A DNA stretch of 64,000 nucleotides from Globisporangium splendens. Taxonomy: Eukaryota > Oomycota > Peronosporomycetes > Pythiales > Pythiaceae. Of the stretch, positions 43,107 through 52,341 are shown one piece after another (within the stretch, counting starts at the first letter, position 1; every line of letters starts with the position of its first letter). A program made the translations under genes and the position numbers. The stretch covers positions 62,001-126,000 of the forward strand of contig VFIW01000087.1 of the NCBI GenBank assembly GCA_006386115.1, written 5' to 3'. Under the pieces are notes generated by a model that saw nothing but the letters and a program-made list of their open reading frames with translations, searched no databases and was not told the DNA's origin.

Positions 43107-44365
43107 ATGGACCATGATGTGTTCTGCGATGATGGACCGTCGATCTCGCAGCTCCAGGCGGCCGTCAAGGCGCTCGAAGAGTACGTGCACCAGATCGTCC
43201 CACCCGCGGGTCGGAATGTCGGCAAGAATGAGGACAACAATGACGACGACGACGATAAAGAGCGCGGCGCGAAGATCCGCCGCATGAAGGAGCGCACGAC
43301 AACCACGAGGCAGCGCACGACGCGCAAGTTCCCGACGCCGTCGCTCGTGCATCTGTTCAGTCGGCAGGACTTTGCGCGCTCAAAATGGCGCGATTTAGCG
43401 CGCGCGCACGTCGCGATCTACGGACTTGGCGGCGTCGGCGCGCTGGTCGCCGAGTCGCTCGTTCGCTCGGGGATTGGCAAGATCCTGCTCATCGACCACG
43501 CGCGCGTCGAGATGAGCGCCATTGGCGAGATGGCGTTCTACCCGGACGAAGTGGGCTTCTCGCGCACGCAGGCACTGCGGCTGCACCTGCAGAGCATCTC
43601 GAGGACCGACGCGAGCACGTGCGTCGAGTCGTTCAGCGCAGATTTGTCCAAGGACGCCGACCTCGTGGAGCTCAAGAAGCGGCTCAAGGTGAGCAGCGTC
43701 GGCGTCAACAGCACCAGCGTCGTCTACAGCCACAGTCACCCGCATACTTCCAACACTAACGATGCCACGTCCTCGTCGTTCTCGTCATCAGCGCATGACA
43801 GCGAAGCGCTCGGTCTCTTTGAGGCGCTGACGCTGAAGCGGCCCTATGATGCGATCATTTGCTGCGCCGCCGATGAACAGGCGAAGTTCCGCTTAAACGA
43901 GATCTGTCTGCAGCTCAGTCTGCCGCTGTTGGGCGTCGACATCCCACCCAGCAACGCCAAAGTGAGCATCCGCGCCGTGCTGCCTGGCCACACGTGCTGC
44001 CTCGTGTGCATTCGCCAACACGAGGAAGCGACGCACACGTTTACCCCCATGGACCAAGTGGCGCGCTCGATCGCACGCGCATTCCCAGCGTCCTTACCAC
44101 ATGTCGAAGCCATCGCTGCGGGGCTTCTCGCGCAAAGTGTGGTCAAGTAAGTGCTACTGCAAACATACCCACAGTGCTGGGACTGATGACATGCCTTGCA
44201 CATTTGGACAGGTTCTTGCTGGATCTGGGCAAATTTGTACCGTTCTACGTCGTCGATATGCTCACGTTCGAGATCGAATCGTATTCGTTCCCGCCGAACC
44301 GGAATTGCCCAAACACTTTCTGCATCGAGCGTCAAAACGAAGAGCAAAACACGCCAGCAAATTAG
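43107..44365 (+). CDS. UBA5-like E1 (UFM1-activating family) lacking the catalytic cysteine
   Basis: Exons 43107-44146 and 44212-44365 give 397 residues. UBA5 features: nucleotide-binding YGLGGVG (105-111), SGIGKILLIDHARVE, AIICCAADEQAKFRLN, zinc ligands CLVC (Cys 298, 301) and NCPNTFC (Cys 379, 384), and the ASLP..EAIAAGLLAQSVVKFLLDLG block. Human UBA5 has GVCAASLP with catalytic Cys250; here the segment reads RAFPASLP, with Phe (about 326) in its place. The CVDNFEAR segment (Mg/ATP Asp) reads CAADEQAK, and the Asn-Arg after VELAN is also absent. The C-terminal UFM1- and UFC1-binding tail is missing and a charged N-terminal extension of about 90 residues is present. So it probably binds nucleotide poorly and cannot form the thioester. 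It may be a regulatory pseudo-E1. MoeB/ThiF-type E1s fit less well. Confidence 0.78.
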
Positions 44366-48438: not shown

Positions 48439-48456
48439 CCTCATTCGCGAATTTCC
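48439..48456 (+). promoter_or_regulatory. Oomycete initiator (INR/FPR-like) of THI4
   Basis: CCTCATTCGCGAATTTCC combines an initiator (CTCATTC, consensus YCAYTYY) with a flanking AATTT element, as in the known Phytophthora INR plus FPR core promoter. Transcription starting here would give a leader of about 470 nt that includes the TPP aptamer. Confidence 0.5.
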
Positions 48457-48568
48457 TCCGCAAGACTCAAGTTCCCCGCAAGCTCTTCTCTTAGAATTGG
48501 TAGCGTACTTCTCCCTTTCTTTGCGTGCGTCTTCTTTTTCGTCCCGCATTCCTCCTTCCGATCTCTTC

Positions 48569-48585
48569 TGTGTGTGTGTGTGTGT
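48569..48585 (+). repeat. (TG)n tract in the THI4 leader
   Basis: About eight TG units, 105 bp upstream of the aptamer; may lie in a leader intron. Confidence 0.85.
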
Positions 48586-48631: not shown

Positions 48632-48649
48632 TGTGTGTGTGTGTGTGTG
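48632..48649 (+). repeat. Second (TG)n tract in the THI4 leader
   Basis: Nine TG units, 40 bp upstream of the aptamer. Like the INTS8 tract it could serve as the polypyrimidine-like stretch of the predicted acceptor at 48692. Confidence 0.85.
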
Positions 48650-48677: not shown

Positions 48678-48692
48678 CTAACATACATTCAG
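48678..48692 (+). promoter_or_regulatory. Candidate 3' splice site overlapping riboswitch stem P1
   Basis: CTAAC (48678-48682) is a perfect branch-point motif, followed by ACATTCAG with the acceptor AG at 48691-48692. That AG lies inside the 5' strand of aptamer stem P1 (48690-48694), so TPP-stabilised P1 would bury it. Confidence 0.6.
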
Positions 48693-48712
48693 CGAGGGGT
48701 GCCGTGGCAATT

Positions 48713-48742
48713 ATGGACGAGTTCCATTTCTTGACCGGCTGA
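48713..48742 (+). promoter_or_regulatory. Upstream ORF 1 inside the aptamer P3 arm
   Basis: ATG at 48713 opens nine codons (MDEFHFLTG) and stops at the TGA within the invariant CTGAGA. If the aptamer stays in the mature mRNA this ORF precedes THI4 and could reduce its translation. Confidence 0.5.
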
Positions 48743-48753
48743 GATTATACCCT

Positions 48754-48783
48754 ATGAACCTGATCCGGGTCATACCGGCGTAG
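48754..48783 (+). promoter_or_regulatory. Upstream ORF 2 inside the aptamer P4/P5 arm
   Basis: ATG at 48754 opens nine codons (MNLIRVIPA) and stops at the TAG within the invariant GCGTAGGGA. It is in a different frame from upstream ORF 1. Confidence 0.5.
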
Positions 48784-48912
48784 GGACTGCTGTGTTGACG
48801 TTGTTGCTTTCATCGTTATGCTGTTGCCTCTCTCCTGTCGTCGTGCTGTGTGGGCGATCGACGCCGACTTGGTCAATCTACTGTGAGCAGTCTGTCACTA
48901 CCAACCAGCATC

Positions 48913-50127
<1,215 letters not shown>

Positions 50128-50666: not shown

Positions 50667-52341
50667 ATGGCGTCGTCGTTCGCGCCGAAGAACACGCTGC
50701 TCGGAGCGACCAATTGCGACCCGCACACCAAGTCCCACTTGAAACCACAGCGGTTCAAACTCGTGGAGAACCAGTTGCGCATTGACAGCACGCTGAGCCA
50801 ACTGAACCAACTGACCACTCACAGCGATCTTCGCGATACACGAGGCTTCGACACGACAGCAAGTGACATCGGTGGCAAACTGGACTGCGTCCTCGTCCCC
50901 GAGAGCAAATTCGCGCCGCAGAATGTGAACAAGGTGCGTTCTCCTCATTCTCGCTTTCTTTCGAGCGTCTAAAACATACTCTGAAAATGCAAACGCAACG
51001 TAATTGCAGGTGCTGCGCTTCCAGAGTTTCTATGTCGAAAGCGTCGACGAAAGCAACTTGGAGATTGTGCGGCTGCGCAAGAACACCATCTTGTTGTACC
51101 TGCACGGCGAGACGTTCGAGATCATCGAGTCGCGAGTCCAGAACAGCGGTATTCCGCAGGGTACGTTCCTCAAACGCTGTCGGTTCAACAATCCCGATGG
51201 CTCGCCGTACACGTCGAGAGATCTCCGCATTGGCATGGACTTCCCGATCTTTGGGCGATCGTTCAAGCTCTATGAGTGCGACCCGTTCACGCGCGCTTTC
51301 TACGCGGATCAGGGTATCGACGTCGGCAAGACCATTGAGCTGCCCAAGGACGAATACACGTTGACGCGCGAGCAGATCACGCGCATGTGCGGCAGTGATC
51401 GCGACCATTTCTACGGCAAGGTGGGCTACCCACTCAAGACGTGCATGGAGGCGTCGCTCGGCAACCCGAATCGGTCGAGTTTGCAGAGCGAGAAGAAGCG
51501 CAGGTTCCTGGCGAATAACCGCAAAGTGTTGTCGTTCCATTGCGAGTACGACGTGCGCGACCGGTTGTACAGCGATCTGATGACGTACATTCTCGACTAT
51601 TTCCTCGAAGACGACACGACCGAGTTCAAGGAAGTGCAGACCGCCAACTCGGGCCACGATCCGTTCCCGAAGCTCTTGCGACGCTGCCGCTTACTCAAGA
51701 ACTGGAAAGAGAGCTTGGCGGACGAGCAAGACCGCGGCGTGGAGACGCCAACGTCTGCCGAGAGCTACTACAACGAACAGGACCTTTATGTTGGCGCTGT
51801 GCTCAACGTGTATAGGGAGAAGATGAAGCTGGTGGACGCGGATCTGTACACGCGCGACTACTACAAGATGGCGTGGGGGCTCAACCTAGCGCCACCGATG
51901 ATCACAGTGCTGGAGAAACCTGTTTTTGAGAAGCCCGAGCCGCCAGCGTACAACGGTTATGGGACTGAAGAAGACTCGCTCGGCTCATGTAACTCGCTCT
52001 GTCCAAAGCCGCCGCGCAAGGATTTCAAGAAAATGGCCGCGTTCGATCGCATGCTGCTGCGGTTCTCGGCCAAGATGATCTCGAGCCGCAAGGAGCAGCA
52101 TCAGCGACGATTCATCATCACGTTTTTCCTCACGGACGACACGATAGCGATCTACGAACCAGAACAGCGCAACTCCGGCGTCGTAAACGGTAAGTTCTTG
52201 GAACGCAGACGCTACAAATCGAATGACGGTGTGTACTTCAACCTCCAGCATTTCACGATCGGCGCCGAGTTAGTGTTCAACTCGCATCGCTTCGAGATCA
52301 CCGATGCCGACGAGTACACGAAGAAATTCCTAGCGTCCTAG
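50667..52341 (+). CDS. Axonemal protein with three DM10 domains (EFHC/Rib72-like)
   Basis: Exons 50667-50933 and 51010-52341 give 532 residues. The N-terminal helix-rich region is followed by three DM10 domains at roughly residues 90-200 (VLRFQSFYVESV..FKLYECDPFTRAFY), 260-390 (VLSFHCEYDVRDRL..MKLVDADLYTRDYY) and 430-530 (LLRFSAKMISS..FEITDADEYTKKFL). Three DM10 domains in this order are the signature of EFHC1/EFHC2 and Chlamydomonas Rib72, microtubule inner proteins in the A-tubule of ciliary doublets. Those relatives carry a C-terminal EF-hand. Here the protein stops right after DM10-3, as if lacking the calcium module. Expected location: zoospore flagella, so expression in sporangia/zoospores is likely. 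Confidence 0.88.

What the first reader, a model, noticed from the sequence alone, without database searches (positions are those of the whole stretch)
48690..48792. Complete TPP riboswitch in the THI4 leader of an oomycete-like genome
Seen directly: all conserved TPP aptamer motifs (CTGAGA, ACCTGAT, GCGTAGGGA) with compensated P1, P2, P3, P3a and P5 stems, 120 bp upstream of THI4 on the same strand. TPP riboswitches are established in fungi, plants and algae. I am less certain how far they are described in oomycetes, many of which are reported thiamine auxotrophs.
Basis: partly seen in the sequence, partly recalled or inferred. Interest (0 to 1): 0.9.

Follow-up and report, generated by a model that had tools for sequence, protein, structure and literature searches.

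The report
TPP riboswitch before oomycete THI4
The leader of a vitamin B1 synthesis gene in a plant-infecting water mould carries a convincing vitamin B1 sensor made of RNA; such sensors are already known in this group, but its splice signals suggest it may switch the way plant and green-algal ones do.

Summary
Rfam's TPP model matches window 48685-48804 (+) at 71.2 bits (cut-off 54.3, E 5e-12), end to end. THI4 starts 120 bases after the aptamer. The genome is Globisporangium splendens (formerly Pythium splendens). A genome search found five TPP hits over cut-off, at three kinds of locus: THI4; an intron of a TenA-HMP-kinase gene (two haplotigs); the leader of a symporter-like gene (two haplotigs). 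Novelty is answered in print: McRose 2014 reported TPP riboswitches in Phytophthora, and Mukherjee 2018 in 15 of 17 oomycetes, on NMT1, THI4, HMP kinase and transporters. This is a new member of a known kind.

One detail is less ordinary. At all five copies a consensus-like branch point, CTAAC, sits 7-8 bases before an acceptor-like CAG that forms the 5' strand of P1; 0 of 22 bacterial TPP aptamers have that pair. Splicing there would keep upstream ORFs (THI4, transporter) or create a premature stop (HMP kinase). That resembles the aptamer-embedded acceptor of plants and green algae more than the alternative-donor types described for oomycetes. There is no RNA evidence, and folding tests gave mixed signs.

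The parts
48440..48499 (+). putative first leader exon of THI4, starting at an oomycete initiator-like motif (motif recalled), without ATG
   Evidence: neither transcription start nor donor is shown
48500..48505 (+). candidate 5' splice site GTAGCG, same hexamer as in the transporter leader; other donor-like sites exist, e.g. GTGCGT at 48525
   Evidence: inference
48678..48682 (+). CTAAC, branch-point-like motif just upstream of the aptamer, also at the HMP-kinase and transporter aptamers
48690..48692 (+). CAG, candidate 3' splice acceptor inside the 5' strand of P1 (CAG|CGAGGGG)
   Evidence: inference
48685..48804 (+). TPP riboswitch aptamer, RF00059 (P1 boundaries 48690-48792)
   Evidence: 71.2 bits, E 5.1e-12
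48713..48742 (+). short upstream ORF MDEFHFLTG* in the P3 arm, ending at the TGA of the invariant CTGAGA; the transporter aptamer has MDEFLASTG* / MDEFLAPTG*
48754..48783 (+). short upstream ORF MNLIRVIPA* across P4/P5
48818..48886 (+). 22-codon upstream ORF after the aptamer
48883..48908 (+). candidate distal 3' splice acceptors (after 48890 or after 48908) that would remove the aptamer and every upstream ATG
   Evidence: inference
48913..50127 (+). THI4 (thiamine thiazole synthase), 339 aa, exons 48913-49088, 49211-49922, 49996-50127; PF01946; keeps the SCMDP cysteine motif of suicide-type THI4 (motif recalled)

Best explanation
It is a TPP riboswitch that gives THI4 negative feedback from vitamin B1. 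Shown by computation: a complete aptamer in the THI4 leader, with sister aptamers on a TenA-HMP-kinase gene and a transporter in the same genome. Inferred: the switch works on splicing of the leader intron. When TPP is scarce a distal acceptor near the THI4 start is used, the aptamer and all upstream ATGs are removed, and THI4 is made. When TPP is bound, the acceptor embedded in the aptamer's own 5' strand (CTAAC...CAG|CGAG|GGG) is used, the aptamer and its short upstream ORFs stay in the mRNA, and THI4 translation falls. In the HMP-kinase gene the same choice would create a premature stop. I put about 0.95 on 'TPP riboswitch', about 0.85 on 'splicing-based repression' and about 0.5 on 'the embedded acceptor is the regulated site'.
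For: Covariance-model match of 71.2 bits end to end. Five hits over cut-off in the own genome, at thiamine genes or a transporter. The HMP-kinase aptamer lies in a 408-nt coding intron: my spliced product is identical to the NCBI protein P0121, which is the gene prediction of this same genome, and a second Globisporangium protein, P0122, skips the stretch too. Under one criterion anchored on the Rfam hit start (CAG in P1, CTAAC 4-18 nt upstream), 5 of 5 own copies (3 kinds of locus, two of them in both haplotypes) have the pair; of 22 bacterial RF00059 hits 3 have the CAG and 0 have it with CTAAC, CTRAC or even YTRAY. In the window 4 of 2495 CAGs on both strands, the aptamer's own included, have CTAAC 4-18 nt upstream. 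Consequences have one sense at all three genes: the distal acceptor candidates leave 0 upstream ATGs in THI4 and transporter and give the 657-aa HMP-kinase fusion; the embedded acceptor leaves 3 and 1 upstream ORFs and a stop 13 codons past the HMP-kinase junction in both haplotypes. [quoted passage not shown]), and in Chlamydomonas THI4 TPP causes retention of an upstream ORF (PMC12371167, passages).
Against: No RNA data were available: neither transcripts nor TPP binding were tested. The THI4 and transporter elements resemble each other beyond the aptamer (178-nt match, 74% identity), so the three loci may count as two. The candidate donor GTAGCG is not a strong site and other donors exist, so fungal-type alternative donors are not excluded for the leaders. 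Folding the leaders with and without the aptamer enforced gave mixed signs: the branch point opens in THI4 (0.42 to 0.65 unpaired) and transporter (0.19 to 0.72) but closes in HMP kinase (0.78 to 0.46), and the embedded CAG is fully paired in the aptamer form at all three; a paired acceptor would naively be used less, not more, when TPP binds. That the upstream ATGs fall inside the distal intron is weak evidence, because that intron is most of the leader. Fold energy is not clearly better than shuffles at any of the three aptamers (z -0.17, 0.60, -0.99).
Confidence: 0.8

Rival explanations
1. Fungal-type switch (Mukherjee Type I in the leader, Type III in the HMP-kinase intron): TPP chooses between two 5' splice sites upstream of the aptamer, with one fixed acceptor downstream of it.
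For: PMC5882874 describes these types for fungi and oomycetes. The THI4 leader holds more than one donor-like GT and several upstream ORFs.
Against: Type III is described with an in-frame stop between two donors, upstream of the aptamer; in the HMP-kinase intron the frame stays open for 121 codons past the exon end, through the whole aptamer, in both haplotypes. It does not explain the CTAAC + CAG pair at all five copies.
Confidence: 0.3
2. Intron retention: P1 formation with TPP hides the acceptor CAG, so the upstream leader intron stays in and adds inhibitory upstream ATGs; no distal acceptor is involved.
For: Unspliced leaders carry 6 (THI4) and 4 (transporter; 6 in its second haplotype) upstream ATGs, against 3 and 1 after splicing at CAG. 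The embedded CAG is fully paired in the aptamer form. Thiamine-inhibited leader splicing is known in Aspergillus oryzae thiA (PMC10226581, passage).
Against: In the HMP-kinase gene splicing at the CAG gives a truncated protein, so hiding it would not repress that gene.
Confidence: 0.12
3. Aptamer without a working switch, as found for a diatom THIC aptamer.
For: The predicted Phaeodactylum THIC aptamer did not regulate in tests (PMC9544697, passages).
Against: Diatom aptamers are said there to lack an obvious acceptor AG and to lie in 3' UTRs; here three loci keep the aptamer together with splice signals, two of them in both haplotypes.
Confidence: 0.06

Closest known systems
TPP riboswitches of oomycetes on THI4, NMT1, HMP kinase and transporters (Mukherjee et al. 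2018, PMC5882874; McRose et al. 2014, PMC4260697, Phytophthora)
   Same: Same aptamer class, same gene set (THI4, HMP kinase, sodium-symporter-type transporter), same broad group; some Pythium species there have the riboswitch on HMP kinase instead of NMT1, as found here.
   Different: This species' genome was published in 2020, so it is probably not among their 17 (their supplement was not seen). The parts of the main text that I read describe alternative donors and mention no acceptor inside the oomycete aptamer.
Green-algal and plant TPP riboswitches with an alternative acceptor in P2 (Croft 2007, Wachter 2007, as cited in PMC9544697; originals not read)
   Same: AG on the 5' strand of the aptamer, here preceded by a branch-point-like motif; predicted outcome is retained upstream ORFs or a premature stop.
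   Different: Here the better-placed acceptor candidate is the CAG of P1, four bases before the P2 AG; use of either is not shown.
Neurospora crassa THI5/NMT1 and THI4 riboswitches (Cheah 2007, via PMC5997356 and PMC7404189 passages; original not read)
   Same: Leader intron, upstream ORFs, thiamine represses.
   Different: The regulated site there is a second 5' splice site.

Membership tests
TPP riboswitch (RF00059) | Covariance-model score over the curated cut-off, full length | tested here: met
   71.2 vs 54.3 bits, 1-105/105
TPP riboswitch (RF00059) | Conserved ligand-contact motifs CTGAGA and GCG | tested here: met
   48739-48744 and 48778-48780; their role as contacts per PMC9544697 passages
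TPP riboswitch (RF00059) | P1-P5 architecture | tested here: met
   cmscan alignment and minimum-energy fold; fold energy itself not better than shuffles
TPP riboswitch (RF00059) | Linked to thiamine synthesis or transport genes | tested here: met
   THI4 by PF01946; sister copies at HMP kinase and at a transporter that matches TIGR00813 at E 4e-12 but below its cut-off, and SGLT1 at E 3e-6
TPP riboswitch (RF00059) | Binds TPP and changes expression | not testable with these tools
   needs probing and transcript measurements
Embedded-acceptor (green-algal/plant) expression platform | Acceptor AG on the aptamer's 5' strand | tested here: met
   CAG|CGAG|GGG at 5 of 5 copies, with CTAAC upstream
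Embedded-acceptor (green-algal/plant) expression platform | The acceptor is used in a TPP-dependent way | not testable with these tools
   no RNA data; folding test gave mixed signs
Mukherjee Type III (alternative donors, internal intron), for the HMP-kinase copy | In-frame stop codon between two donors, upstream of the aptamer | tested here: not met
   frame open 121 codons past the exon end in both haplotypes
Mukherjee Type I (alternative donors, 5' UTR intron), for THI4 | Two donors flanking an upstream ORF before the aptamer | tested here: inconclusive
   several donor-like GTs and upstream ORFs present; none confirmed

The most novel reading that the evidence does not exclude
Oomycete TPP riboswitches do not, or not only, use the fungal alternative-donor scheme described for them but an acceptor embedded in the aptamer itself, with its own branch point, as in plants and green algae. 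One portable module (branch point + acceptor + aptamer) then serves a synthesis gene, a TenA-HMP-kinase gene and a transporter, and a version with a short MDEF... upstream ORF in P3 appears to have been copied between the THI4 and transporter leaders.
Probability: 0.4. Interest if true: 0.45.

Novelty: new member of a known kind. Interest (0 to 1): 0.27.

Why it matters
It indicates that a plant-associated Globisporangium controls its own vitamin B1 synthesis by RNA, unlike thiamine-requiring Phytophthora. If the embedded-acceptor reading holds, the mechanism class given for oomycete riboswitches would need revision, and ordinary RNA-seq or RT-PCR with and without thiamine can settle it.

Tried and rejected
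Comparative oomycete DNA: I found none to compare. The collections offered hold prokaryotes, viruses, phages, plasmids and E. coli; viral contigs, phages and plasmids were not searched, and metagenome scans were capped at zero. Only the loci and haplotypes of this genome could be compared. A protein search with the HMP-kinase exon read on through the intron, meant to catch relatives' aptamers in unspliced gene calls, returned one protein that ends before any aptamer. A riboswitch near NMT1/THI5, TMP synthase and thiamine pyrophosphokinase: none at E up to 0.5 in the three stretches given (L010, L012, L015). HMP-kinase intron as Type III: rejected. That the 180 nt after the HMP-kinase aptamer is a hidden coding exon: the annotated Globisporangium proteins skip it, left open. 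Folding-based accessibility: mixed signs, not used as support. A first bacterial control by regex (80 loci, 37 cores in 34 loci, 23 with a P2 strand; 3 with CAG, 1 with CTAAC, 0 with YTRAY and CAG) was rough: it misplaced my own aptamers, and Rfam did not confirm 3 of the 23 (L056, L089, L091). It is replaced, which uses the 22 RF00059 hits in the 23 loci given to Rfam; the other 57 of 80 loci were not given to Rfam.

Papers: PMC7163027 read whole; PMC5882874 passages plus section 7; PMC4260697, PMC6747730, PMC5997356, PMC2248709, PMC7404189, PMC10226581, PMC12371167, PMC9544697 passages only; PMC12702839 one passage, a reference entry. Cheah 2007, Croft 2007 and Wachter 2007 not read; Li and Breaker 2013 and Mehrshahi 2020 not held. 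That an embedded acceptor in oomycetes is not in print rests on searches (listings) and on the parts of PMC5882874 that I read; its supplement was not seen.

Full report
What is there. The Rfam TPP model matches window 48685-48804 on the + strand over its whole length with 71.2 bits against a cut-off of 54.3 (E 5.1e-12); nothing else in the 64 kb reaches any Rfam cut-off. The predicted fold has P1, P2, an extended P3 arm, P4 and P5, though its energy is like that of shuffled sequence, so the case rests on the covariance model and on context. THI4 follows at 48913-50127 in three exons, 339 aa, with the same length and domain as an annotated Globisporangium polare protein and 99% identity over the 227 residues searched.

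Which organism. My spliced product of the gene around the HMP-kinase aptamer is identical to an NCBI protein of Globisporangium splendens that lies on a contig of 413472 bp, the length of contig C126 here. The published draft genome of strain rgcb-1 has 53.3 Mb, as here. It is an oomycete, order Pythiales.

The set of riboswitches. The genome search, which scored 49 of 1746 candidates, gives five matches over cut-off, re-confirmed. Two pairs look like haplotigs of one locus each (95%, and 94% and 98% in two long pieces), which leaves three distinct loci: THI4; a TenA-HMP-kinase gene with the aptamer inside a 408-nt coding intron; and the leader of a 478-aa transporter with a weak match to sodium/solute symporters, below the family's cut-off. 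THI5/NMT1 is present, and no riboswitch shows in the 3.4-kb stretch around it. ThiC is not found; TMP synthase and thiamine pyrophosphokinase matches are. The route to TPP therefore looks complete, in contrast to Phytophthora, described as a thiamine auxotroph without THI4 (PMC2248709, passages).

Is it new? As a kind, no. PMC5882874 reports TPP riboswitches in 15 of 17 oomycete genomes, on NMT1 and THI4, on HMP kinase in some Pythium species, and on transporters of the sodium symporter superfamily. PMC4260697 had already reported them in Phytophthora. The three loci here fit that description closely. This exact copy is probably unreported, because the genome came out in 2020, but I did not see the 2018 supplement.

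How it probably works. In all five copies the aptamer's 5' strand reads CAGCGAGGGG and CTAAC, a consensus-like branch point, lies 7-8 bases before its CAG. In this window 4 of 2495 CAG trinucleotides on both strands, the aptamer's own included, have CTAAC 4-18 nt upstream. As a control for what the aptamer itself demands, I took bacterial TPP aptamers, which are not spliced: under the same criterion, anchored on the Rfam hit, 3 of 22 have the CAG and 0 of 22 have it with CTAAC, CTRAC or YTRAY, against 5 of 5 here. Splicing at this embedded acceptor has the same sense at all three genes. It leaves three upstream ORFs in THI4 and one in the transporter, where the distal acceptor candidates leave none. 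In the HMP-kinase gene it brings a stop 13 codons after the junction, where the distal acceptor gives the annotated 657-aa protein. In green algae and plants an acceptor AG inside the aptamer (P2 'AGGG') is reported as the regulated site, and in Chlamydomonas THI4 TPP leads to retention of an upstream ORF. I therefore favour the plant/green-algal scheme over the alternative-donor types described for oomycetes, at about even odds. The HMP-kinase intron fails the in-frame-stop criterion of Type III.

What speaks against. There is no RNA evidence. The THI4 and transporter elements share sequence beyond the aptamer and may count as one. Donor sites are ambiguous. Enforcing the aptamer in folding opens the branch point in two loci and closes it in the third, and fully pairs the embedded CAG at all three, so how TPP would favour that acceptor is not explained.

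Verdict. Confirmed and correctly identified by computation, already known as a kind. The residual interest is the embedded acceptor, which is cheap to test.

Noticed in passing
L006 6417-6596 (G000:C126:16416-16595), second half of the HMP-kinase intron: 0 differences in 180 nt between the two haplotypes, while the gene's other introns and the pre-aptamer part differ by 2.4-4.7%, the aptamer by 2.8% and the exons by 0.7-2.2%. Either an unannotated alternative exon, a further regulatory stretch, or chance.
   Followed up: partly
window 48713-48742; L008 and L009 P3 arms: The THI4 and transporter aptamers share the P3 stretch ATGGACGAGTTCC, which starts a short ORF (MDEFHFLTG*, MDEFLASTG*, MDEFLAPTG*) ending at the TGA of the invariant CTGAGA; the HMP-kinase aptamer has a shorter ATG frame ending there, read by eye.
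   Followed up: partly
L006 5314-7932: The TenA domain precedes the HMP-kinase domain in one gene; yeast Thi20 has the opposite order (recalled). Ten aligned oomycete proteins show the same order.
   Followed up: partly
G000:C179:173610-174342: THI5/NMT1 gene without a detectable TPP riboswitch in the fetched stretch, although NMT1 carries one in other oomycetes.
   Followed up: partly
window 51235-52338: DM10-domain ORF next to THI4. The G. polare THI4 hit bears the name Rib72, a DM10 protein (recalled), which suggests a naming slip from a neighbouring gene and perhaps conserved gene order.
   Followed up: no
window 48570-48585 and 48633-48648: GT repeats in the THI4 leader upstream of the aptamer, inside the putative intron.
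   Followed up: no
window 43107-44150: ThiF/E1-like domain ORF about 5 kb upstream of THI4; the family also covers ubiquitin-activating types, so a thiamine role is not implied (recalled).
   Followed up: no
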